Source of the DNA: Streptoalloteichus hindustanus
Lineage (GTDB): Bacteria > Actinomycetota > Actinomycetes > Mycobacteriales > Pseudonocardiaceae
DNA: 64,000 nt
Direction: 5' to 3'
Assembly: GCF_900129375.1 (NCBI RefSeq)
Contig: NZ_FQVN01000015.1
Location: 1 to 64,000, forward strand
The translations under genes were made by a program, and so were the position numbers. Below the pieces are notes generated by a model. That model was not told where the DNA came from. It searched no databases and saw nothing but the letters and a program-made list of their open reading frames with translations. Position 1 is the first letter of the stretch. Each line of letters starts with the position of its first letter. This document shows, in pieces, positions 25,498-37,178 of the stretch.

Positions 25498-27114
25498 TCA
25501 CCGCCCGGCTCCGACCACCTCCCGTCCACGGGTCTCCACGAACGGGGCGAGCAGACCGGGCACCGCCTGTTCCGCGTAGGCCAGGCCCGTGCCGAGTTCC
25601 ACGTCCCGCACGGCGTAGGAGCCGGGGCCGGCCGCGGTCGTGGCGACGAGGGTGATGAGGCCGGCCCGGCGCTGGAACACCGACCGGGACACGGTCCAGC
25701 CGATCACGCCGTCGCGCCGCAGCGCGACGGTGCGTCGCTGCGCGGTGCCGGACCGGATGACCAGGTAGCGGCCGTGGATCGCGTGGCCGAGGGAGCGGGC
25801 GGCGTCGACCGCCGCCGCGACGCCCACCGGGATCACGATCACCGCGGTGATCCACGCCAGGTGCAGCAGCACGGGCGTCAGCCACAGGCCGAGCACGGCC
25901 AGCACGAGGACCGGCGGCACGGTCCACCACACCACCCACCGGAGGCGTCGCCCCAGCGCGGCGCGGGGGTGCGGGCGCAGTGGCACGGTGGTGGGCGGGT
26001 GCGCCTCGCGCAGCACCTCGACGACCACCCGCTGCGCCTCGGCCTTCGGCGCGGGCGGCAGCAGTGCGTCGGACTTCGACCGCTCGTCGTCGCTGTTGGC
26101 GCCCAGACCGACCGCGACGGCGTTGACCCGCGCGCCCCGCCCCCAGCGCAGGAACAGCGGCTCGACGAACTCGACGCCCCGCAGCCGTCGCTCCTCCAAC
26201 GACACCGACCGCGTGGTCAGCAGACCCCGACGGACCCGCAGCGTGCCGTCCGGTTCCCGTTCCAGCCGGTAGCCCCACCACGTCTCCGCGGTGACGGCCA
26301 GGGAACCGAGCGAGCCGATCACCACGACGACCGCGAGCACGGCCGCGATCCCCAACCACAGCGGGACCGAGCGGAACGTCCGCCACGCCTCGGCGATGAA
26401 GTCGCTCTGCCACAGCTCGACACCGAAGATCCGGAAGGCCCGCTCCGCCGCGCCGACCAGGACGCCGACCCAGGCCAGGCTCCAGATCGACAGCGGGGCG
26501 TAGCGCAGCCACCGGTGGTCCCAGCCCGCGAGCAGGCCGTCGCCGCGCCAGGTGGTGGGCGCGGTCTCCCCTGCCGGCCCGCCCGACCTGGTCGGCCAGC
26601 CCGCCGACCCGGCCGGTCCTGCCCCGCCGCTCGGGCCGCCAGCCACCCCGGGCCGGCGTTCCCACAGTTCCCGCCGCAGCAGGGCGGCCTCGGCGTGCGA
26701 CACCGCGTCCAGCACCAGCTCGCTGTCCTCACCGCTGCCCGTCGACGCGCCCGTGCCGATCCGCACCACCGACAGCCCGAGCACGCGGTGCCACGGGTGC
26801 GCGGTGAGGTCGACGCTGCGGACGCGCTCCCGCGGCACGGAGCGAACCCGGCGGACGAACACGCCGGAGCGCAGTTCCACGCGGTCGGGGGTGAGCCGGT
26901 AGCGGGTGGACCGGCAGCGCACCACGTCGGCGATCGTGACCAGCACGAACACCGCCGTCAAAATCGCCAACGTGATCAGGAACTCGGGGTCGAACCGTCC
27001 CCCCTTCCACAGCGCGCCCACCGCGGCGGGCACCAGCGGCACCGCCAGCCACCGCAGGTTCGCGGCGGCCATTCGCGGGTCCAACCGCCGCCACTCCTCC
27101 TCGTCGCCGGTCAC
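25498..27114 (-). CDS. PH-domain (YdbT/YvdB-like) membrane protein
   Basis: 538 aa from the GTG at 27114, overlapping the stop of the preceding gene (ACGTGA). Three bacterial PH-2 (YdbT-type) modules alternate with paired TM helices: RCRSTRYRLTPDRVELRSGV...RVRSVDLTAHPWHRVLG; WWGYRLEREPDGTLRVRRGL...RRLRGVEFVEPLFLRWG; and HGRYLVIRSGTAQRRTVAL. A Gly/Pro-rich linker lies near residues 155-185. With the 185-aa partner it forms the common YdbS-YdbT pair of unknown, probably envelope-stress-related, function. Confidence 0.85.
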   Translation of the reverse strand: MTGDEEEWRRLDPRMAAANLRWLAVPLVPAAVGALWKGGRFDPEFLITLAILTAVFVLVTIADVVRCRSTRYRLTPDRVELRSGVFVRRVRSVPRERVRSVDLTAHPWHRVLGLSVVRIGTGASTGSGEDSELVLDAVSHAEAALLRRELWERRPGVAGGPSGGAGPAGSAGWPTRSGGPAGETAPTTWRGDGLLAGWDHRWLRYAPLSIWSLAWVGVLVGAAERAFRIFGVELWQSDFIAEAWRTFRSVPLWLGIAAVLAVVVVIGSLGSLAVTAETWWGYRLEREPDGTLRVRRGLLTTRSVSLEERRLRGVEFVEPLFLRWGRGARVNAVAVGLGANSDDERSKSDALLPPAPKAEAQRVVVEVLREAHPPTTVPLRPHPRAALGRRLRWVVWWTVPPVLVLAVLGLWLTPVLLHLAWITAVIVIPVGVAAAVDAARSLGHAIHGRYLVIRSGTAQRRTVALRRDGVIGWTVSRSVFQRRAGLITLVATTAAGPGSYAVRDVELGTGLAYAEQAVPGLLAPFVETRGREVVGAGR

Positions 27115-27668
27115 GTGGCGTCCCCTTCCGTGCGCTGCGTCGCCGCCGTCAGCCACTGCGCGAGATCCTCGGCGATCCTGTGGTCGAGGCCGCCGATCCG
27201 GATCGGTCCGGCCGCGGAGGCCGTGGTGACGGTCACCGCCGAGAGCCCGAACATCCGGAGCAACGGGCCGCGCACGGTGTCGACGGTCTGGATGCGGGAC
27301 ATGGGCGCGATCCGCCACTTCTGCCAGAACCAGCCGGAGGCGGTGTAGACGGCCTGGTCGGTCACCTCCCACCGGTGCACCCGGAACCGCCAGCGCGGCA
27401 TCACGAGCACGTAGGCCACGCCCGGCAGCGCGACCAGGGCCAGCGACAGCCCCAGCCACAACCGCGCGGGCGGAATCAGCGCGGTCAGCAGCGCCAGCGT
27501 CAGCACCGGCGGCACGACGATGACCAGCGCCAGCGCGGTCCAGTACCGCACCGCACGGGGGTCGACCTCGTGCCGGGGCGGCCGGAGCCGCAGTTCCGCC
27601 GGCTGCCCGGCGCCCGGCGGCGACACGCCGACTCGGGGTCCGTACGGCGATCCGTCCACTGTGGCCAT
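27111..27668 (-). CDS. PH-domain (YdbS-like) membrane protein
   Basis: 185 aa. Two adjacent TM helices (TALALVIVVPPVLTLALLTA and LWLGLSLALVALPGVAYVLV) precede a single PH-2 domain with RVHRWEVTDQAVYTASGW and IAPMSRIQTVDTVRGPLLR, the hallmark of YdbS. The stop overlaps the start of the 538-aa partner. A GTCCACTGTGGCC variant of the recurring palindrome spans the start region (27654-27666). Confidence 0.85.
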   Translation of the reverse strand: MATVDGSPYGPRVGVSPPGAGQPAELRLRPPRHEVDPRAVRYWTALALVIVVPPVLTLALLTALIPPARLWLGLSLALVALPGVAYVLVMPRWRFRVHRWEVTDQAVYTASGWFWQKWRIAPMSRIQTVDTVRGPLLRMFGLSAVTVTTASAAGPIRIGGLDHRIAEDLAQWLTAATQRTEGDAT

Positions 27669-27875: not shown

Positions 27876-29114
27876 GTGACCCGACGCCTCTGGGAAGCAC
27901 GACTCCAGGCCCTCTTCGACGCGGGGCCCGCGTTGTGCGTTCTGGGCATCATGGCGGGCATCGTCATCGCCCACGGCCTGCCCGACGACGTCGGCGGCTG
28001 GGCGAGCCTGACCCTCCAGGCCGCTCTCGGCGCCGCGCTGTTCTACCGGCGTCGCGCCGCGCTCACGGTCACCGTCCTGACGACGCTGGGCGCGATGGTC
28101 ATGCTGGGGTCGGTGTACCTGGCTGGCGGCCTGCTCGTGAACATGGAGGACCCCGACGCCCTGTGGGTGCCCCTGGCCACCCCGTTCGCGATCTCCGCCA
28201 CCGTCCTGCACGCCGCACACCGCCGACTCACGTGGGTGTTGGCCGCGGTGCTCACCACGGCCGCCACGCGTCCGTGGAACACCTCGCTCGGCGTCATCAC
28301 GGCGGGCCTGCTGTTCACCGCCGTCCCCGTGCTGCTCGGCATGTACGCGGCCGACCGCCACCGGCTGATCCAGGCGCTCACCGACCGCGCGGAGCGGGCG
28401 GAGCGGGAGCAACACCTGCTGGCCAGGCAGGCCCGCGCCGAGGAGCGCGTCCGGTTGGCCGGGGAGATGCACGACGTCGTCACGCACCGGGTCAGCCTGA
28501 TGGTGCTCCAGTCCGGGGCGCTGCGGATCACCGCGACGGACGAGCGCACCCGCGAGGCGGCCGAGGAGCTGCGGGCCGCCGGGTGCCAGGCGCTGGAGGA
28601 ACTCCGCGACCTCATCGGCGTCCTGCGCTCGTCCGCGACGTCCGAACCGTCCACTTCGGACAAACCGGGCCCGTCCGACGGCGCGGCGCTGCCGCCCCTC
28701 GCGGACCTGGTGGCCGAGTCCGAGTCGGTCGGGGTGCCCGTCGAGCTGGTGGAGGACGGCAACCCGCTGTTCGCCTCCCCCGTCGTCGCGCGCACCGCCT
28801 ACCGCGTGGTGCAGGAGGCGTTGACCAACGTGCGCAAGCATGCGCCGGGCGCGCCCACCCGCGTGCACGTGCGCTACGGCGCCGACCGCGTGCTCCTCAC
28901 CGTCCGGAACAGCGCCCCCACGCACCCCAGCGACACCGCGCTCACGGCCAGCGGTTCGGGCACCGGGCTGCTCGGCCTCCGGCAACGCGTCGAGCTCGTG
29001 GGCGGAACCCTGCGCGCCCGGGCCGAGACCGACGGCGGGTTCAGCCTCAATGCGACACTGCCCGCCTACGTGCCCACCACGCCGATCACGGAGAGCAGCC
29101 GACATGGGTCGTGA
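27876..29114 (+). CDS. Sensor histidine kinase, NarL/LiaS-type (HisKA_3)
   Basis: 412 aa from the GTG at 27876. Five to six TM helices fill residues 12-165. A coiled stretch follows, then the HisKA_3 box AEERVRLAGEMHDVVTHRVSLM with the phosphorylatable His, and HATPase_c with VVQEALTNVRKHAPG and the GTGLLGLRQRVEL G box. The sensory input is probably a membrane signal, because there is no large extracellular domain. It overlaps the start of the cognate response regulator by 11 bp. Confidence 0.88.
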   Translation: MTRRLWEARLQALFDAGPALCVLGIMAGIVIAHGLPDDVGGWASLTLQAALGAALFYRRRAALTVTVLTTLGAMVMLGSVYLAGGLLVNMEDPDALWVPLATPFAISATVLHAAHRRLTWVLAAVLTTAATRPWNTSLGVITAGLLFTAVPVLLGMYAADRHRLIQALTDRAERAEREQHLLARQARAEERVRLAGEMHDVVTHRVSLMVLQSGALRITATDERTREAAEELRAAGCQALEELRDLIGVLRSSATSEPSTSDKPGPSDGAALPPLADLVAESESVGVPVELVEDGNPLFASPVVARTAYRVVQEALTNVRKHAPGAPTRVHVRYGADRVLLTVRNSAPTHPSDTALTASGSGTGLLGLRQRVELVGGTLRARAETDGGFSLNATLPAYVPTTPITESSRHGS

Positions 29115-29766
29115 GGTCATCCGGGTGGTCGTCGTCGACGACGAGCCCATGGTGTGCGCGCACCTGCGCACGATCCTCGGGTCCGCCGACGACGTCGACG
29201 TGGTCGACCAGGCCCACGACGGCGCGGCCGGCGTCGAGGCCGTGGTCCGGCACCGCCCGCACGTGGTGCTCATGGACCTGCGGATGCCGGGGGTCGACGG
29301 CCTCACCGCGATCGAGCACATCGGCCGGCTCCCGGACCCGCCGGCGGTGGTCGCGCTCACCACGTTCGACGTCGACCAGTACGTGCTGCGCGCGCTCCGC
29401 GCCGGCGCGGCTGGGTTCCTGGTCAAGTCGACCCCGCCGGAGGACCTGATCGGCCTGGTGCGCGTCGCTGCTGACGGTCACACGGTGCTGTCCCCCTCGG
29501 CGGCACGCCGGCTCGTCGCCGCGTCCACCGACGAGCACACGGCGCGCGAGCGCGCCCGCACCCTGGTCGACCAGCTCACCAGCCGGGAGGTCGAGGTGCT
29601 CACCTGCCTCGGTGAGGGCCTGTCGAACGCGCGGATCGCCCAGCGCCTGCACCTGAGCGAGGCGACCGTGAAGGGCTACGTCTCGCGGATGCTGGACAAG
29701 CTCGACTGCGCCAACCGCACCCAGGCCGGCCTGCTGGCCTACGACGCCGGCCTGGTCACCCGCTGA
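29104..29766 (+). CDS. NarL/LuxR-family response regulator
   Basis: 220 aa from the ATG at 29104. Receiver VVVVDDEPMVCAHLR with the phospho-acceptor Asp in VVLMDLRMPGVDG and the conserved Lys in GFLVKSTPPEDL; LuxR HTH LTSREVEVLTCLGEGLSN, then RIAQRLHLSEATVKGYVS. Co-translated with the kinase encoded just upstream. The target promoter is unknown. Confidence 0.9.
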   Translation: MGREVIRVVVVDDEPMVCAHLRTILGSADDVDVVDQAHDGAAGVEAVVRHRPHVVLMDLRMPGVDGLTAIEHIGRLPDPPAVVALTTFDVDQYVLRALRAGAAGFLVKSTPPEDLIGLVRVAADGHTVLSPSAARRLVAASTDEHTARERARTLVDQLTSREVEVLTCLGEGLSNARIAQRLHLSEATVKGYVSRMLDKLDCANRTQAGLLAYDAGLVTR

Positions 29767-29921: not shown

Positions 29922-30455
29922 ATGGATCGCGGCCAGCGGTTCAACGAGCTCATGCGAACGTTCGAGGAACAGGCGACCAAGGCGTCGACGTTGCGCGACG
30001 CGTTGAAGGACCTCAAGGGGACGGCGCAGAGCCGCGACGGGGCGGTCACGGTGACCGTGGCGCCCTCCGGCGCGGTGGTCGGACTCCAGCTCTCGCCACG
30101 CGCCATGCAGAAGTCGCACGTCGCACTGCAACAGGAGATCCTTCAAACGATCCGCGAGGCGACCAGCAACGCCGCCCAGCAGGTGGAGGAGACCGTCGCC
30201 CCGGTGCTGGGCGACGAGCTGATGGACCGGTTCCGCCAGGGCATCGGGTCGGCACGCGTCGAGGCGATCCAGCCCGACGCCTCCCCCGCCCCGCAGCCGG
30301 AACGGACGCCCCCGCCCGCGCCCAGGCATTCGGCCCCGGAGCCCACCTGGTCGGGCCAGCCCCCGACGGCTCCGCCACCACCGCCGGCGCGACCACAGCG
30401 GAACCAGCCGGCGCCCATCGACGACGAGGAACCCCCGGGTTCCTTCCTGAGCTGA
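29922..30455 (+). CDS. YbaB/EbfC-like protein heading the WXG/A-B cassette
   Basis: 177 aa with GAGGGGGAT upstream. The first 100 or so residues (LKGTAQSRDGAVTVTVAPSG, then VVGLQLSPRAM) are the YbaB/EbfC fold found beside ESX-type genes in actinomycetes. The C-terminal 70 residues are Pro-rich and probably disordered. YbaB proteins bind nucleic acid; ESX-adjacent ones are thought to be secretion-associated (EspL-like). First gene of a co-directional block reaching 36614. The gap to the next gene is 10 bp. Confidence 0.75.
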   Translation: MDRGQRFNELMRTFEEQATKASTLRDALKDLKGTAQSRDGAVTVTVAPSGAVVGLQLSPRAMQKSHVALQQEILQTIREATSNAAQQVEETVAPVLGDELMDRFRQGIGSARVEAIQPDASPAPQPERTPPPAPRHSAPEPTWSGQPPTAPPPPPARPQRNQPAPIDDEEPPGSFLS

Positions 30456-30465
30456 GGGAGCGGCA

Positions 30466-30798
30466 GTGGACGACTTCCACATCCAGCCCGAGGCCCTCCT
30501 CGTCTACGGCGAGGGTTCGCAGAGCCTCGCGGAGAAGTTCGGCCAGCTCGCCGACCTGCTCGAACAGGCGAGGGTCAACGACGAGTGCTTCGGGCCGGTC
30601 GGCGACGCGGTCGGGCTCAGCAGCGGCTACTTCGAGAGCCTCCAGGAGTGCCAGCAGTTGGCGGTACGAGCCATGACCTTCCTCATGCAGGCGCACGCGA
30701 ACCTGGAGGAGAGCCACGCCCTCTACACGGGCGTGGACACCGGCATGGCCCAGGGCTTCACCCAGCTTATGGACCTCCTGGGCGGTGAGAAGGCATGA
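30466..30798 (+). CDS. WXG100/ESX-like small helical protein
   Basis: 110 aa from a GTG at 30466. Predominantly helical, beginning DDFHIQPEALLVYGEGSQSL, then AEKFGQLADLLEQA, with a mid-protein GPVGDAVGLSSGYFESLQE turn in place of WXG, like DUF2580/ESX-associated (EspC-type) proteins. No signal peptide. The stop overlaps the start of the next gene (ATGA), and its position between the YbaB-like gene and the 423-aa gene supports a role as substrate partner or chaperone in type VII-like secretion. No EccC-type motor gene is in this window. Confidence 0.7.
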   Translation: MDDFHIQPEALLVYGEGSQSLAEKFGQLADLLEQARVNDECFGPVGDAVGLSSGYFESLQECQQLAVRAMTFLMQAHANLEESHALYTGVDTGMAQGFTQLMDLLGGEKA

Positions 30799-32066
30799 GC
30801 GAGAACAAGGTTCCCGACGGGCCCGGCAACCTGGCCGACCTCAACAGCGGCGACAAGAAGAGCTGGCTCGGCCAGGCCGCCGGGCGCGGCAGCTCGTTCA
30901 TCGGCTCGATGCAGGACCTCGCCGACGCCAGCTCGCCGCCCGAGCTCGCCGTGGCCACGGTCTCGTCGCGGATGGAGGCGCTGCAGGCCCTGGCCAGCCC
31001 CGGCAAGTACTTCGTGGACAACAACATCGGCTTTCTCGTCTCGATCGTGCTGAGCCCGCTCGTCGAGCTCGCGGAGTGGGCCATCGGCGACCCGGAGCAG
31101 ATGAAGGCCACCGCCAAGGGCTGGGAGAAGGTGGCCACGTGGCTGGACCACGCCGCCGAGGAGGAGACCCGACGCGCCGAGGCCACCGCCCCGGTGTGGG
31201 CGGGCCCGAGCGGCGACGCGTTCCGCAAGCAGATGCGGGAGTTCGGTGAGGGCGTCACCGCCATGGCGCAGGACGTCCGCGAGCTGAAGGAGATCCTGGA
31301 GCTCATCGCGGACCTGTTCGACATGTTCATCCAGTTCGTGATCGAACTGCTCACCGAACTGGTGATCGGCCTGATCGTGGAGTGGCTCGCCGCCATGGCC
31401 GCCTCCTGGATCACGGCCGGCGCGTCGGTCGGAACGGCCACGGCCACCACGACCTTCCAGGTCGGCCAGACCGGCATCCGGATCACGACCAGGGCCACCA
31501 AGCTGCAGACCGAGCTCTACCGGCTGTTCAAGCAGCTCGAAGGAATCCTGAACAAGCTCAGGAAGAACAAGTTCCTCGAGAAGATCGTTGAGCCGACGAA
31601 GAACCTGCGCGAAGGCGGCATGGTGAAGCGGTTCCTCGCCAGGCAGGCCGACAAGAAGGGCGGCACGCTGTTCAGCACGGTCACCAAGGCCGAGAGACCG
31701 AAAACGGTCGACTCAGCCACGAAGGTAATCAAGGAGGCAACTGAGGGGTGGACCTCCAGCACCGGCAACCGGTTCATGAAGATCAAGGACGCCGGCTACA
31801 GTCCGAAAACCGGCGAGTTGGTGGATCTCAACGCCACGGGAGAAAGTGCACTCGCCGCCAATGTCGCACAGAGTCTGCTCGGCAAGGTGCTGGGTGGCAC
31901 GACCCGATCGGGCAGTGCGGCATGGAAGGCGGGTGTTGAGGTCGGAACGGACCAGGTGATCAAGCAGGGCGCGGAGCACGCCTACGACGAGGGCAAGGAT
32001 CTGGCACAGGGAACGCCGTCGAAGGAGGAGCGTCGCTCCGCCCAGGAGCGAGGGTTCAGCTGGTGA
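30795..32066 (+). CDS. Large WXG-motif protein, putative type VII-secreted effector
   Basis: 423 aa. The N-terminal 150 residues are helical with a VWAGPSGDAFRKQM motif (W135-x-G137), typical of WXG100/PPE-like secretion domains. A strongly hydrophobic helix pair (about 165-205, ELVIGLIVEWLAAMAASWI) follows. The C-terminal 200 residues are basic then mixed (GYSPKTGELVDLN) and match no toxin family that I recognise. It is in the position of a polymorphic effector followed by accessory or immunity genes. The stop overlaps the next start by 4 bp (GTGA). Base composition is slightly less G/C-biased at third positions than in flanking genes. Confidence 0.7.
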   Translation: MSENKVPDGPGNLADLNSGDKKSWLGQAAGRGSSFIGSMQDLADASSPPELAVATVSSRMEALQALASPGKYFVDNNIGFLVSIVLSPLVELAEWAIGDPEQMKATAKGWEKVATWLDHAAEEETRRAEATAPVWAGPSGDAFRKQMREFGEGVTAMAQDVRELKEILELIADLFDMFIQFVIELLTELVIGLIVEWLAAMAASWITAGASVGTATATTTFQVGQTGIRITTRATKLQTELYRLFKQLEGILNKLRKNKFLEKIVEPTKNLREGGMVKRFLARQADKKGGTLFSTVTKAERPKTVDSATKVIKEATEGWTSSTGNRFMKIKDAGYSPKTGELVDLNATGESALAANVAQSLLGKVLGGTTRSGSAAWKAGVEVGTDQVIKQGAEHAYDEGKDLAQGTPSKEERRSAQERGFSW

Positions 32067-32782
32067 GCGACAAGAAGCAGAGGATCTCCTCTCTGATCGC
32101 CGTCCGCGAGCACTGGTGCCGGCCGGACGAGCCCATCCTCCTCAGCCTCAGGCAGAATCTGCCCTCCTCGACGCTGTACCAGGTCAAGGGGTTCGACAGC
32201 AAGGGAAAGCCGCTGCCTGGCCTGGGCCGCAGAGCACTGCGCGCCACCGGTTATGCCGCCGCCGCCACGGTTCTTGTCGTGACCACGCCCTCCGCTGCCA
32301 GCGAACCCGGCAACGGCGCGATGTCGAGGTCCATTCCCGATCTCCTCGTGTTCGGAGACAAGCCGGACTGCGCCGCCATCAGCGCGATCGGGCCGGTCCG
32401 CGAGGAAGCCGGCTTCTGGGTCTTCACTCCGTCCCGGCTCGCGTTCGTCGTCCGGCAGGAGGAGCCCGGGGAGACGCAGAGCGACGAACGCCGCTCCCTG
32501 CTGGGAAAAGTCAGGAACATAGGGGCGGAACTGCTCGACGCCGTGACGTGGACGGACGACTCGGAAATCCCGCCACCGCCCGGCCCGGAGCGCATCGTGT
32601 CCGCGTTCGAGTTCGCCCCACAGCATGTGAGCAACATGGAGGCAACGAAACACCGCCTACCCCGAGGGTTTTCCTCCCGCGACGTCCATTGTCTCCGGGT
32701 GACCCTGTTCGACGGGTCGGGATTCGTCTTCACCACCGGTTGGCCGGACCGGGCGTTGGCCATGGCCCTCGGCCAGCAGTGA
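32063..32782 (+). CDS. Unknown family A protein, copy 1
   Basis: 239 aa from the GTG at 32063. The architecture is REHWCRPDEPILLSL at the N-terminus, KGFDSKGKPLPGLGRRAL followed by a hydrophobic stretch (RATGYAAAATVLVVTTPSA), FGDKPDCAAI, FWVFTPSRLAFVV, a Ser-rich charged linker with SLLGKVRNIGAELLD, and a C-terminal strand set RIVSAFEFAP...CLRVTLFDGSGFVF, ending MALGQQ. The paired features TPSR-LAFVV and L.VTL.DGSG.xF resemble a YokE/bacterial PH-like domain, which is inference. Its paralogues are at 33610 and 35165; each is followed by a family B gene. Confidence 0.75.
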   Translation: MSDKKQRISSLIAVREHWCRPDEPILLSLRQNLPSSTLYQVKGFDSKGKPLPGLGRRALRATGYAAAATVLVVTTPSAASEPGNGAMSRSIPDLLVFGDKPDCAAISAIGPVREEAGFWVFTPSRLAFVVRQEEPGETQSDERRSLLGKVRNIGAELLDAVTWTDDSEIPPPPGPERIVSAFEFAPQHVSNMEATKHRLPRGFSSRDVHCLRVTLFDGSGFVFTTGWPDRALAMALGQQ

Positions 32783-32804
32783 TCCCAGGAGAGCCGCAGA
32801 GAAC

Positions 32805-33551
32805 ATGAACGACAAGCTCGACAAGGCAGTCGCCCAGCTTCAGTCGGGGTGGCTCGCTCCCCACGAGCGACCCATCCTGGTGCGCTGGCCCGGACACGTG
32901 GCCTCCACGATCGGCAACAGCCGTCTCGTCCCGCACGTCCCGCAGGGCTCGACTCCGCCGACCAGGGCTCCGCAGTTGCGCGCGGAGATCCATCCAGCCG
33001 TACGTGAAGGTCGGTTCTGGAACGACGAATGGGTTCACGACCCGGCGACCTGGGGTTGGGCCTACGCCCAACGGCCTGACCAGTTGGCGATCCGCCTCGC
33101 CGACCACTGCGTCGCCGGACGAGCGGCGAGCGTTCTCGTCCTGACCACCCACCGGTTGGCCGTCGTCATCGAGACGAAGTTCTTCGGCGAGCCGGAGCCC
33201 GAGCCGGAGGGCCAGCAGGAGACTTCGACCGGCGGAGGTCTCTTCGGCAAGGCCATGGCTCTGGCGAGGAGCTTGCAGAGCAACGAGGACGGAGACGGCA
33301 AGGAGCCGAAACCCGAGGTGCCGTTGTTGACCACGCTGTGGGAGGTACCGCTGAGCGCCGTCCGAGGCTTTCGCCCAATCCCCAAGGGAAGAGACCTCGA
33401 ACACATCTGGCATCTGGCGATCGACTTCGCCGACGGCTCGATGCTCGAGTTCTTCGCGGAGTACGCGCAGAGCGACGTCCTTCATATCCACAAGTGCTTC
33501 CAGCGGGTGCCGTCTCCCGACCCCACAGCTCCGCCGATCCAGCCGCGGTGA
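32805..33551 (+). CDS. Unknown family B protein, copy 1
   Basis: 248 aa. GWLAPHERPILVRWPGH at the N-terminus parallels the WCRPDEPILL of family A. Then come APQLRAEI, EGRFWNDEWVHDPATWGWAY, RPDQLAIRLADHCVAG, LTTHRLAVVIE, an acidic linker with GGGLFGKAMALA, LTTLWEVPLSAVRGF and LAIDFADGSMLEF, ending SPDPTAPPIQPR. No signal peptide or TM helix. Copies 1 and 2 share long identical blocks, including nucleotide identity at their 3' ends, so their duplication is recent. Function unknown; it probably partners the A protein of the same unit. Confidence 0.75.
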   Translation: MNDKLDKAVAQLQSGWLAPHERPILVRWPGHVASTIGNSRLVPHVPQGSTPPTRAPQLRAEIHPAVREGRFWNDEWVHDPATWGWAYAQRPDQLAIRLADHCVAGRAASVLVLTTHRLAVVIETKFFGEPEPEPEGQQETSTGGGLFGKAMALARSLQSNEDGDGKEPKPEVPLLTTLWEVPLSAVRGFRPIPKGRDLEHIWHLAIDFADGSMLEFFAEYAQSDVLHIHKCFQRVPSPDPTAPPIQPR

Positions 33552-33609
33552 AGGGGACGTCTGTCATGGTGAGGACTGATAACTCGCAGGAGACGACGGG
33601 GCGATACGT

Positions 33610-34335
33610 GTGGTGAGCGGTAAGAAAACGGAGATCTCCAGTGTGCTCTCCCTCCGCGAGACATGGTGTCGGCCGGACGAGCCCATCCTGCTCTTCAAGT
33701 GGCATCGACAGTCGACGTTGACGTGCTTCGACGTCAAGGGTTTCGACCTGAAGGGAAGGCCGCTGCCGAGCCTGGGGCGACGAGCGGTCCGGGCTGCCGG
33801 GATCGGCGCGCTGGCCACGGTTCTCTTCGTCGTGGCGATGACGGAGGACGCCAGCGGGGAAACCGGTGGCGGGTCGCCGAGCGGACCAGAGCTCTTCGTC
33901 TTCGGGGACGGCGCCGAGTGCGCCGCCGCCACCGCGATCCGTTCAGCGAACGCGACGATGGGCTGCTGGGTCTTCACACCCTCCCGGTTCGCGTTCGTGG
34001 TGCGAGCAGAGGCTCTCGAGAAGGACCAGGACACCGAAAGCCGCTCCTTGCTGGGACGAGTCAGAAGCGTGGGAACTGACCTGCTCGACATCGCGAAGGG
34101 AGCAGCGGTCGAGAGCGCGGCAACCCCGTCTCGCGAGCCGGAGCGCATCGTGTCCGCGTTCGAGTTCTCCCCGCAACAGGTCACCAACGTCCAGTTGGCC
34201 TGGCGCAAACTCCCCCGCAAGTACGGCGGGGGCAACAGCCGCTATCTCCGAGTGACTCTCTGGGACGGGTCCGGCTTCGATCTCGGAACCTGGCTACCGG
34301 AGCGAGCGTTGGCCATGGCCCTCGGCCAGCAGTGA
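33610..34335 (+). CDS. Unknown family A protein, copy 2
   Basis: 241 aa from tandem GTG codons at 33610/33613. It aligns with copy 1 along its whole length: RETWCRPDEPILLF, KGFDLKGRPLPSLGRRAV, hydrophobic GALATVLFVVAM, FGDGAECAAATAI, WVFTPSRFAFVV, SLLGRVRSVGTDLLD, RIVSAFEFSPQQV and LRVTLWDGSGFDL, and the same ALAMALGQQ end. The central hydrophobic stretch could be a single TM helix or a buried strand. The spacing to family B copy 2 is 24 bp, like the 22 bp in unit 1. Confidence 0.75.
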   Translation: MVSGKKTEISSVLSLRETWCRPDEPILLFKWHRQSTLTCFDVKGFDLKGRPLPSLGRRAVRAAGIGALATVLFVVAMTEDASGETGGGSPSGPELFVFGDGAECAAATAIRSANATMGCWVFTPSRFAFVVRAEALEKDQDTESRSLLGRVRSVGTDLLDIAKGAAVESAATPSREPERIVSAFEFSPQQVTNVQLAWRKLPRKYGGGNSRYLRVTLWDGSGFDLGTWLPERALAMALGQQ

Positions 34336-34359
34336 ACCCACGGAGCACGGGAGAGAATC

Positions 34360-35100
34360 GTGTTCGACAAACTCGGTAAGGCGGTTGGCCAGCTCGAAAC
34401 GGGCTGGCTCGCTCCCCACGAGCGACCCATCCTCGTGCGCTGGCCCGGCCACGTGCTCTCCACCATCGGCAACAGCCGTCACATTCCGCACGTTGCACAG
34501 GGACCAGTTCCGCCCACACGCGCACCCCAGTTGCGCACCGAGCTCCACCCCGTCGTGCGCGAAGGCCGGTTCTGGAACGACGAGTGGGTGCACGACACCG
34601 CCGTCTGGGGATGGGCCTACGCGCAGAGACCCGACCACCTGGCGATCCGCCTCGCCGACCACTGCGTCGCCGGGCGAGCGGCGAGCACCCTTGTCCTGAC
34701 CACCCACCGGTTGGCCGTCGTCATCGAGACGAGCCTCCTCGGCGAGCCAACGCCAGAACCAGGGGACGAGCCGGAGACCGGCCGAGGAATTCTCGGCAAG
34801 GCGCTGACACTGGCGAAGAGCTTCCGGAGTGACGAGGGCGGTGACGACAAGGCGTCGAGGTCCGAGGCGCCGGTGGTGGCAACCTTGTGGGAAACCCCCG
34901 TGAACGCCATCAGAGGCTTTCGCCCGCTCGACAAGGGGAGGAGCGTCTCCGTCGTCGAGTACCTGGTGATCGACTTCGTCGACGGCTCGGTGCTGGAGTT
35001 CGCCGCTCCCCATGTGTCCCAGGACACCCAGCACATCGACAAGTGCTTCCAGCGGCTGTCGTCTCCCGACCCCACAGCTCCGCCGATCCAGCCGCGGTAG
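34360..35100 (+). CDS. Unknown family B protein, copy 2
   Basis: 246 aa from the GTG at 34360. Nearly identical to copy 1 through GWLAPHERPILVRWPGHV, EGRFWNDEWVHD, WGWAYAQRPDHLAIRLADH and LTTHRLAVVIET, divergent in the linker (residues 130-170), and again identical at the C-terminus SPDPTAPPIQPR. High conservation in the core with a variable linker fits selection on a structural interface and relaxed linker constraint. A 64-bp gap follows before unit 3. Confidence 0.75.
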   Translation: MFDKLGKAVGQLETGWLAPHERPILVRWPGHVLSTIGNSRHIPHVAQGPVPPTRAPQLRTELHPVVREGRFWNDEWVHDTAVWGWAYAQRPDHLAIRLADHCVAGRAASTLVLTTHRLAVVIETSLLGEPTPEPGDEPETGRGILGKALTLAKSFRSDEGGDDKASRSEAPVVATLWETPVNAIRGFRPLDKGRSVSVVEYLVIDFVDGSVLEFAAPHVSQDTQHIDKCFQRLSSPDPTAPPIQPR

Positions 35101-35164
35101 AAGACGAGGCGGCCTGCCGGGACCGGGTCGACCGTCCACCGAGGACGGAGGGTTCAATACCCTG

Positions 35165-35890
35165 GTGAACAGCTATGAGAAGGAGCTCAAGTACGACGGT
35201 CTGATCGCGCTGCTTGAGAGGTGGTCCGGACCGCGCGAGCCGATCCTCATGTTCACCGGTCACAATCTCGGGTCCCCGCGTGCGACGCACTTCGACGTCA
35301 ACGGGCTGGACCGCTTCGGACAGCGCACCAGCGTCGCCACCCGGAGCCTCCGCGCGCTCAGTGACGGTCTGGAGTACACGAACAACCTGGGGGGTGTGGA
35401 GCACTCCGGCATCCCTCGCCTGACCGTGTTCGGTGGGCACCCCGACTGCTCCGCGATGACGCTGGTGGCAGGCCGGGAAACGCTCGGCTTCGGCTACTGG
35501 ATCATCACGCCGTCCAGGCTCGCGTGGGTCACGCTGCCCCAGCCGGCCGAGGAGTCGTCGAGCCAGGGACCGGAGCAGTCCCTGCTCGGCCTGGCGCGTG
35601 GCATCGGGAGCGGGTTGCGCGGCCTGCTCGGGGACAAGGAAGCTGAGAAGGACACTGAAAACAAGGATGTTGAGAAGCCGCCACCGCCACCACCGATGGT
35701 GACGGTGCTTCAGGTGCCCCGACAGGAGATCGCGGTGAGCGTCGCGGAGCGTCGGATGCCCGCGGCGTACAACCGGGAGAAGATCGGCTGCCTGCGGCTC
35801 ACCCTCCCCGACGGCTCCGGTCTCGACTTCAGCACCGACGGCATCGAGAGCGCCCAGTGGGTGTTCGCCTCGGTGACCGGCCAACGCTGA
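35165..35890 (+). CDS. Unknown family A protein, copy 3 (divergent)
   Basis: 241 aa from the GTG at 35165 (same length as copy 2; the frame extends 51 codons further up without family similarity). Shared landmarks are LERWSGPREPILMF, NGLDRFGQRTSVATRSLRAL, VFGGHPDCSAM, YWIITPSRLAWV, SLLGLARGIGSGL, VPRQEIAVSV and LRLTLPDGSGLDF. The hydrophobic stretch seen in copies 1-2 is absent here, replaced by a polar segment, so membrane insertion is not a conserved property. The linker ends in a poly-Pro run. Confidence 0.72.
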   Translation: MNSYEKELKYDGLIALLERWSGPREPILMFTGHNLGSPRATHFDVNGLDRFGQRTSVATRSLRALSDGLEYTNNLGGVEHSGIPRLTVFGGHPDCSAMTLVAGRETLGFGYWIITPSRLAWVTLPQPAEESSSQGPEQSLLGLARGIGSGLRGLLGDKEAEKDTENKDVEKPPPPPPMVTVLQVPRQEIAVSVAERRMPAAYNREKIGCLRLTLPDGSGLDFSTDGIESAQWVFASVTGQR

Positions 35891-35903
35891 GGCGGGGAGA
35901 CAC

Positions 35904-36614
35904 ATGATCAAGAACAGGTTGCGGATCGCGGAGGTCGCCCAGAAGGACTGGGCAGGACCGCGGGAGAAGCTCGTGTGGCTCTTCGGCGGGGTGCCCAACC
36001 CCGCCGTGTGTTCCACGGTGGGGCAGGAGCATCGAGCGCCGCACGTCCCGATGGGGTCGGTGCCGGCGCTCCGCGCACCCGAGCCGCTGCTCCCGCCGCC
36101 CAGCGCGGTCGTCCGGAACGGTCGGTTCTGGAACGACGAGTGGGCACACGACCCGAAGGTCTGGGCGTGGGCGTACGCCGCGCGGCCGGACCAGCTCGCT
36201 GTCCGGCTCGCCGACCACCTCGTCGCCGGCGCGGACGCGACGTGGGGTCTGCTCAGCACCGAGCGGATCGCGGTGATCATCGAGTCCCGGTACGTCGGGG
36301 ACCCCGAGCCCGCCGAGCCAACGGAGGAGACGCCGGGCGGCGGGTTGTTCGGCAGGGCGCGGTCACTCACGAAGGGTGTGCAGTCCCTGCTCGACCGACC
36401 CGAGGAGAAGCCGCGCCGTCAGGTGGTCAGCCTGTGGGAGGCGTCAGCGGGAGCGATCGGGCGGATCAGCGCGGTGCCCCGAGGACGGGGGCTGTCCCCC
36501 GCCTGGTTCGCCCGCGTGGACTTCGTCGACGGCTCGGCGTTCGAGTTCGCCTCCAAATCCGCGTGCCAGGACGTGGAGACCGCGCACCTCAACCTCTCCG
36601 CCTCGCAGCGGTGA
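35904..36614 (+). CDS. Unknown family B protein, copy 3 (divergent)
   Basis: 236 aa. Conserved landmarks are KDWAGPREKLVWLF, NGRFWNDEWAHDPKVWAWAY, RPDQLAVRLADHLVAG, LSTERIAVIIES, GGGLFGRARSLTKG, VVSLWEASAGAI and ARVDFVDGSAFEF. It keeps the RFWNDEW signature unchanged although the rest has drifted, marking that motif as functionally important. It ends the cassette, 6 bp before a convergent lipoprotein gene. Confidence 0.72.
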   Translation: MIKNRLRIAEVAQKDWAGPREKLVWLFGGVPNPAVCSTVGQEHRAPHVPMGSVPALRAPEPLLPPPSAVVRNGRFWNDEWAHDPKVWAWAYAARPDQLAVRLADHLVAGADATWGLLSTERIAVIIESRYVGDPEPAEPTEETPGGGLFGRARSLTKGVQSLLDRPEEKPRRQVVSLWEASAGAIGRISAVPRGRGLSPAWFARVDFVDGSAFEFASKSACQDVETAHLNLSASQR

Positions 36615-36620
36615 GCGTGG

Positions 36621-37178
36621 TCAGTGGGCGAAGGGCTCCATGCAGCCGAACTCCTTGCCCTTGCCCTTGATCTCGACGCGGACCTGGTCGGGTCGGACGT
36701 CGCCCTCGACGCAGGCTGGTCCGACGCTCACGCCGTAGGCGGCGCCGGGTGGCGGAGCGTCGGACGTGGCTCCGGCCGAGCGCAGCGGGATGACGGCGAC
36801 CGCGTCGGCGCGGTGGCCGAGGTCGACCAGTGCCTGGCGCACGGTCTCCGGGGAGATGTTTCCCTTGGCGCGCAACTCCTCCAGTCGGTTGCGCACGGGA
36901 CCGGCGGCGGCCTCGCCCGCCGTGCGGTCGGTGTCCGAGAGCTTGGCGCGCTGCTTCCAGCTGTTGTTCTCCGCGTGGTGCGGCGCGCCGTCTCCCGCGA
37001 CTGGAGGGCGCGTCGCGCTCGACACCGCGGTGGTGCTACCGGGACTGGTGGACGTGGACGTGACGAACACCGGCCCGGCCGGCTGCTGGTTCGGCTGCTG
37101 CCCGCAGCCAACGACACCGAGCAGGGGCAGGGTCGTCAGGGCGGCGATCCCGATCTGACGGCGAACGCGGTTCGTCAT
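36621..37178 (-). CDS. Putative lipoprotein, function unknown
   Basis: 185 aa. The signal peptide MTNRVRRQIGIAALTTLPLL ends in the lipobox VVGC (Cys25), then a Thr/Ser/Pro-rich linker. A helical region (SPETVRQALVDLGHRADAVAV) and a C-terminal segment with two Cys (GPACVEGD, KEFGCMEPF) follow. Such N-anchored proteins with a small Cys-paired domain are common in actinomycetes, without known function. It converges on the A-B cassette. Confidence 0.7.
   Translation of the reverse strand: MTNRVRRQIGIAALTTLPLLGVVGCGQQPNQQPAGPVFVTSTSTSPGSTTAVSSATRPPVAGDGAPHHAENNSWKQRAKLSDTDRTAGEAAAGPVRNRLEELRAKGNISPETVRQALVDLGHRADAVAVIPLRSAGATSDAPPPGAAYGVSVGPACVEGDVRPDQVRVEIKGKGKEFGCMEPFAH

What the first reader, a model, noticed from the sequence alone, without database searches (positions are those of the whole stretch)
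29922..36614. WXG/ESX-like cassette followed by three tandem copies of an unknown two-gene unit
A YbaB-like gene, an ESX-like small protein and a large WXG protein with a variable C-terminus are followed, in the same direction and with overlapping or near-overlapping starts, by A1-B1-A2-B2-A3-B3. All A proteins (239, 241, 241 aa) and all B proteins (248, 246, 236 aa) share ordered signatures (W..PxEPIL, FG..xDCxA, TPSRxA in A; RFWNDEW, RLADHxVAG, TxRxAVVIE in B). Units 1 and 2 are recent duplicates, unit 3 is older. Neither family is one I can name. The layout (secretion substrate followed by amplified partner pairs) fits immunity, adaptor or receptor arrays, but the function is unknown.
Basis: partly seen in the sequence, partly recalled or inferred. 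Interest (0 to 1): 0.82.

Follow-up and report, generated by a model that had tools for sequence, protein, structure and literature searches.

The report
PH-like protein pairs beside secretion substrate
An actinobacterium carries genes for a likely type VII secretion substrate followed by three copies of a pair of related, previously unnamed proteins that probably act together as handling partners for such substrates, a job done by unrelated proteins in better-known bacteria.

Summary
The layout is real: YbaB-like (Y), ESX-like (E) and WXG (X) genes, then A1-B1-A2-B2-A3-B3 (29922-36614). Pfam, NCBIfam, PHROGs and PADLOC name neither A nor B. Corrections: A and B are paralogues of each other (profile-profile 99.4%, 15% identity), fused in 8 of 81 loci; X's C-terminus is conserved, so no variable toxin is visible; units 1 and 2 are old copies (53% and 70% identical). 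Both AlphaFold models look PH-like, but no Foldseek hit reaches E 1e-3. B occurs in 70 of 200 genomes of the window's family, with no convincing case in a 396-genome phylum sample. E/X bears type VII export marks. Dependence looks one-sided: 54 of 56 genomes with X have A or B, yet 17 of 70 with B lack X, and there A-B is under purifying selection. Elsewhere in this genome EspG chaperone genes follow PPE-like genes, the slot A-B fills here. Best reading (inferred): A-B is a two-subunit PH-like chaperone or adaptor for type VII clients, not an immunity array. New variant of a known kind; no interaction was tested.

The parts
29922..30455 (+). Y: YbaB/EbfC-like protein, 177 aa, proline-rich tail
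   Evidence: Pfam PF02575 6.3e-13, above cut-off; directly before E/X in 48 gene pairs over 81 loci
30466..30798 (+). E: EspC/ESX-like small protein, 110 aa, with YTGVD (YxxxD) at residue 87
   Evidence: window E itself has no Pfam hit above cut-off; 29 of 43 E/X family members match PF10824 EspC at E<=1, best 2e-10; YxxxD/E near residue 85 in 52 of 58; fused to X in 32 of 58
30795..32066 (+). X: WXG100_2 protein, 423 aa, conserved to its C-terminal ERGF end
   Evidence: PF25547 3.1e-09; W135 and G137 invariant in 22 aligned; conserved C-terminus in 58
32063..32782 (+). A1, 239 aa, PH-like model
32805..33551 (+). B1, 248 aa, PH-like model
33610..34335 (+). A2, 241 aa, sister of A1
34360..35100 (+). 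B2, 246 aa, sister of B1
35165..35890 (+). A3, 241 aa, older copy
35904..36614 (+). B3, 236 aa, older copy

Best explanation
E and X together are a type VII secretion substrate of the EspC/WXG type; Y is a YbaB-like stabiliser of it, as proposed for EspH, EspD and EspL of mycobacteria. A and B are paralogous soluble proteins with a PH-like C-terminal domain that work as one two-subunit unit, a cytosolic chaperone or adaptor that holds E-X (and, where E-X is missing, other clients) ready for export by a type VII machine encoded elsewhere. It would fill the slot that EspG or EspK fills in other cassettes without being related to them. Tandem pairs would widen or tune the set of clients. Shown: gene order, paralogy, pairwise inheritance, natural A-B fusions, export motifs, one-sided dependence, purifying selection. 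Inferred: PH-like fold (models only), heterodimer, binding to E-X, chaperone role.
For: A-B inherited as pairs: 71 adjacent A-B in 81 loci, 8 natural fusions; tandem pairs in other species match other species' pairs in both the A and the B tree. X rarely occurs without them: 54 of 56 genomes with a strong X have A or B. In six genomes with two cassettes, X, A and B of each are never closest to their paralogue in the same genome. Export marks: WxG, YxxxD/E in 52 of 58, conserved C-terminus. Two EccC genes lie elsewhere in this genome. Position: of 8 of 15 EspG genes inspected, four follow a gene matching PPE (one just below cut-off), and a fifth is followed by YbaB. A minimal version Y-E-X with one A-like protein exists in 5 loci (L144-L148). 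Precedent that chaperones of this class need not be homologous: EspK is not related to EspG yet binds the same tip (PMC9811218, passages); YbaB-like EspH binds EspE (PMC6107294, passages). A and B lack a consistent membrane segment.
Against: 24 of 81 A/B loci have no E/X nearby; 17 of 70 genomes with B lack a strong X, and A-B there is under purifying selection, so A-B has work to do without this X. At one shared locus (next to DprE1/DprE2 genes) Y-E/X is present in some genomes and absent in others while A-B stays. PH-like fold rests on models: best Foldseek E 6.1e-3 (B) and 0.097 (A), TM-scores about 0.15-0.26 of query; 11 of A's 50 listed hits are not PH-like; profile comparison with bPH_2, bPH_3 and EspG is not significant. 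A2 of the window has a hydrophobic stretch. No interaction, structure of a complex or secretion was tested.
Confidence: 0.4

Rival explanations
1. A-B is a general envelope or signalling module (PH-like scaffold) whose main job is not the handling of E-X; Y-E-X is an optional cargo or regulator that joined it.
For: A-B persists alone under purifying selection in genomes without strong X; in 15 of 81 loci genes of the DprE1-like and DprE2-like clusters lie in the fetched stretch (one representative of each scanned) and an Emb-type arabinosyltransferase in 8; solo A-B also lies beside unrelated genes such as ClpP-like and LigA-like (my reading).
Against: 54 of 56 genomes with X keep A or B and X, A and B follow each other by cassette type, which a passenger relation does not predict; the envelope neighbours are seen in part of the family only.
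Confidence: 0.25
2. A and B are partners exported with E-X and act outside the cell.
For: Same operon-like arrangement as E-X, with short gaps or overlaps.
Against: No signal peptide or type VII motif was noticed in the A or B sequences or alignments by eye (not scanned by a dedicated program); A-B exists without E-X.
Confidence: 0.1
3. Immunity array against a secreted toxin carried by X.
For: Tandem, fast-diverging genes downstream of a WXG protein: mean pairwise identity A 0.275, B 0.314 against X 0.515.
Against: X's C-terminus is conserved, no toxin family was found for X in Pfam, NCBIfam or PADLOC; A and B are under purifying selection between close relatives; A-B persists without X.
Confidence: 0.07
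4. A-B are passengers with no functional tie to Y-E-X; linkage reflects common descent of the locus.
For: Related genomes share loci, so the Fisher value overstates independence; 24 of 81 loci are unlinked.
Against: Different genera carry the cassette in different surroundings; paralogous cassettes in one genome keep their own X, A and B types.
Confidence: 0.12

Closest known systems
EspG (PF14011) with PE/PPE substrates
   Same: a dedicated gene next to a PPE/WXG-type substrate gene; seen in this same genome
   Different: no sequence relation: none of the 16 PF14011 matches lies in the window, hhalign 0.1-0.4%, and EspG is not in the 50 listed Foldseek hits of either model; A-B is a two-gene paralogous unit
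EspB-EspK (ESX-1)
   Same: PE-PPE-like substrate with its own chaperone not related to EspG; a YbaB-like gene product, EspL, is encoded beside EspB and EspK (PMC9811218 and PMC6107294, passages)
   Different: EspK's fold is described as found only in mycobacterial proteins; A-B models are PH-like; relation to EspK itself not tested by sequence
EspA-EspC-EspD and EspE-EspF-EspH
   Same: EspC-like small partner, larger WXG-type protein and a YbaB-like stabiliser (PMC6107294, PMC6319747, passages)
   Different: X matches EspA_EspE (PF18879) in 1 of 43 E/X members only, E 0.039; A-B has no counterpart there that I know of (recalled)
Bacterial PH domains (bPH_2, bPH_3)
   Same: order of strands and C-terminal helix in the models; 3hsa (bacterial PH) among B's Foldseek hits
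   Different: no Pfam hit; profile comparison at most 8.5% (B with bPH_3), 0.1-2.1% otherwise; long insertions

Membership tests
Type VII (ESX/Esp-type) secretion substrate: E-X | WxG motif | tested here: met
   W135 and G137 of X invariant in 22 of 22 aligned
Type VII (ESX/Esp-type) secretion substrate: E-X | YxxxD/E export motif | tested here: met
   YTGVD in window E; 52 of 58 E or fused proteins at residues 70-115; six lack it there
Type VII (ESX/Esp-type) secretion substrate: E-X | export by an EccC machine | not testable with these tools
   two EccC genes elsewhere in the genome
EspC family (PF10824): E | profile match of the window's own protein | tested here: inconclusive
   no match for window E at E<=10; 29 of 43 E/X family members match at E<=1, best 2e-10
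YbaB/EbfC: Y | profile match above cut-off | tested here: met
   PF02575 49.1 bits against 25.5; the NCBIfam equivalog TIGR00103 is below its cut-off, 27.4 against 49.45
EspG: A, B | PF14011 match or relation | tested here: not met
EspG: A, B | gene beside a PPE/WXG-type substrate gene | tested here: met
   57 of 81 loci have E/X in the fetched stretch
EspG/EspK-like chaperone: A, B | binds tip of the substrate's helical bundle | not testable with these tools
   no complex prediction available
PH superfold: A, B | predicted fold | tested here: inconclusive
   pLDDT 86.3/pTM 0.79 (B), 81.4/0.73 (A); Foldseek lists dominated by PH/PTB chains but no E<=1e-3
bPH_2 / bPH_3: A, B | sequence-profile relation | tested here: not met
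Polymorphic toxin with immunity array | variable C-terminal toxin domain in X | tested here: not met
   conserved C-terminus in 58; no toxin family

The most novel reading that the evidence does not exclude
A-B is a further structural class of type VII client chaperone: a PH-like heterodimer that arose from a single-gene form (still seen as Y-E-X-A' cassettes), serves more than one client, and is amplified in tandem to match different clients.
Probability: 0.3. Interest if true: 0.75.

Novelty: new variant of a known kind. Interest (0 to 1): 0.55.

Why it matters
How type VII systems choose their clients outside mycobacteria is little known. If A-B is a chaperone, it shows that another, PH-like protein pair can be put to this use and gives a tractable set in harmless soil bacteria: one-gene, two-gene, fused and tandem versions, with and without the substrate. 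It would also explain a family of proteins that no library names but that occurs in about a third of the sampled genomes of this family.

Tried and rejected
BLASTP of A1 against B1 finds nothing; only profiles show the relation. Solved-structure sequence searches with both family alignments gave no hit below E 0.1. EspG relation rejected at sequence level. bPH_2/bPH_3 relation not shown. Positive selection on A or B: not seen; pairwise dN/dS below 1 in every comparison. Toxin-immunity rejected (above). A paper search for bacterial PH names returned unrelated papers. Literature for this cassette: searches returned no paper whose title or abstract start describes it; those papers were seen as listings only unless named in the report.

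Limits. Genes were called with my own codon-score script, which gives wrong starts in places and some false small ORFs. The 80 regions cover most, not all, match sites: sites in G060, G118, G169 and G184 were not fetched. 'Strong X' means E below 1e-130 (my cut). The strict count of tandem loci (at least two adjacent A-B) is 4 of 81 (window, L045, L046, L087); L054, L055 and L063 hold further A/B copies not called as clean pairs. Genomes are related, so p-values are not literal.
Full report
Observation. The window holds the nine same-strand genes as described. Y matches YbaB (6.3e-13) and X matches WXG100_2 (3.1e-09); E has no family above cut-off; A and B have none that is significant in Pfam, NCBIfam, PADLOC or PHROGs. 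Identities to copy 1 are 53% and 38% for A2 and A3, 70% and 43% for B2 and B3. In this genome B occurs only here (3 matches).

A and B are one family. BLASTP sees nothing, but iterated profiles of A and of B converge on the same 166 proteins at the reporting threshold, and hhalign of 54 A against 54 B gives probability 99.4% over 207 columns at 15% identity. In a tree of 57 A, 51 B and 7 single A-like proteins, A and B are each recovered whole (local support 0.935 and 0.988); six of the seven A-like proteins form a third clade (0.997) and the seventh, L121, does not join them. Eight of 81 loci carry A and B as one protein of 387-443 aa.

Distribution. Of 200 genomes of the window's family, B is found in 70, in 22 of 46 genera, and A in 67. 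In 396 genomes sampled over the phylum only this genome and one weak hit with two stops (E 9.9e-4) appear. Named relatives (21 loci) are Saccharothrix, Lentzea, Saccharopolyspora, Umezawaea, Actinoalloteichus and Gandjariella, plus one record titled Nocardia sp. NRRL S-836, which may be misnamed (my inference) and otherwise would be an exception.

Cassette. In 80 fetched regions plus the window, gene pairs in order are Y-E/X 48, E/X-A 52 (plus 2 E/X-B and 2 E/X-fused AB), A-B 71, B-A 8. The commonest gap between X and A is an overlap of 4 bases. E and X are separate in 26 of 58 and one chain in 32 of 58. YxxxD/E lies at residues 70-115 in 52 of 58; W and G of the WxG are invariant in 22 of 22 aligned; 55 of 58 X proteins have [RK]GF near the end. 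Among 43 E/X members, 37 match WXG100, 34 WXG100_2 and 29 EspC at E<=1; EspA_EspE is matched by one at 0.039. The YxxxD motif is the general mark of type VII substrates (PMC5311947, start of abstract in a listing).

Partner logic. 53 of 56 genomes with a strong X have B and 54 have A or B; 17 of 70 genomes with B lack a strong X. The association is strong, but genomes are related. In 49 cassettes, distances of X correlate with A (0.65) and B (0.62); the nearest neighbour by X is also the nearest by A in 29 of 49 and by B in 32 of 49; the correlation of A with B is lower (0.40). In all six genomes with two complete cassettes the nearest X, A and B are in other genomes, not the paralogue. Tandem sets: window (3), Saccharopolyspora subtropica (3; L046 and L135, apparently the same contig), S. 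rosea (3; L137), L045 (2), L087 (2). In the trees, pairs in S. subtropica, S. rosea and L087 group with pairs of other species in both A and B, so arrays gather pairs of different ancestry. The window's three units are sisters in the A tree (0.961); in the B tree support for all three together is only 0.203.

Against a strict tie. 24 of 81 loci have no E/X in the fetched stretch, also in six-frame search. At the DprE1/DprE2 locus, Y-E/X is present in L091, L108, L110 and L111 (L089 with X but no called Y) and absent in L100, L102, L103, L104, L113 and L114, with A-B kept. In L100 A starts 3 bases after the DprE2-like gene, whereas in L108 about 2 kb with Y and X lies between them. For five comparisons among A-B from genomes without strong X, dN/dS is 0.17-0.43 for A and 0.22-0.29 for B (genome lists). 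So A-B works without this X.

Fold. B1: pLDDT 86.3, pTM 0.79 (27 sequences); A1: 81.4, 0.73. Both end in strand-helix-strand-strand, a long poorly predicted insert, four strands and a helix, which I read as a PH-like domain. Foldseek: B's 50 listed hits are, by title or recalled domain content, PH/PTB/FERM-type chains except 4tyz and 5nrl (best E 6.1e-3); in A's list 11 of 50 are not (best E 0.097). TM-scores are low, and none passes E 1e-3. Profile comparison with bPH_3 gives 8.5% for B and 2.1% for A, with bPH_2 at most 0.2%, with EspG at most 0.4%, controls up to 1.0%. PH-like is therefore a reading of models, not membership. A and B lack a consistent membrane segment: 6 of 72 A and 1 of 74 B exceed the usual cut, the window's A2 being one.

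The chaperone analogy. This genome has two EccC genes and 15 EspG genes, none in the window. Of 8 EspG genes inspected, the gene upstream matches PPE in L162, L163, L168 and, just below cut-off, L164; L166 is followed by YbaB; L165 has a WXG100 gene two genes downstream; L167 and L169 gave nothing. So similar building blocks occur with EspG where this cassette has A-B. EspK shows that a chaperone unrelated to EspG can bind the same tip of a PE-PPE-like substrate (PMC9811218, passages). YbaB-like EspH, EspD and EspL are proposed chaperones (PMC6107294 and PMC6319747, passages). A minimal cassette, Y-E-X with one A-like protein, is found in five loci, one of them in this genome (L144). From these I infer that A-B is a client-handling pair for type VII export; binding is untested.

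Verdict. A real, well conserved and unnamed module.

Noticed in passing
window 25498-27668 (-): Two genes with bPH_2 domains (PF03703; 538 and 185 aa, reminiscent of YdbT/YdbS, recalled) lie a few genes upstream; coincidence with PH-like A/B not explained.
   Followed up: partly
window 27876-29766 (+): What looks like a sensor kinase and response regulator pair (my reading; not scanned) ends about 155 bases before Y.
   Followed up: no
window 36621-37178 (-): Convergent gene for a lipoprotein-like 185-aa protein right after B3 (my reading of the N-terminus).
   Followed up: no
L144:8486-10981 (own genome, contig C14): Second, minimal cassette Y-E-X-A' with a single A-like protein.
   Followed up: partly
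L081, L089, L091, L094, L095, L100, L102, L103, L104, L108, L110-L114: DprE1-like and DprE2-like cluster genes both lie near A-B (15 of 81 loci; one representative of each cluster scanned), with Emb, GLF and UbiA-type genes in several: A-B sits in an arabinogalactan locus.
   Followed up: partly
L045 genes 7 and 14: Two B copies in two cassettes of one genome are nearly identical (tree distance 0.01): recent copying.
   Followed up: no
L121 (own genome, contig C18): A-like protein followed by a YbaB-like gene, without E/X.
   Followed up: no
L069: One locus appears to carry the pair in B-A order.
   Followed up: no
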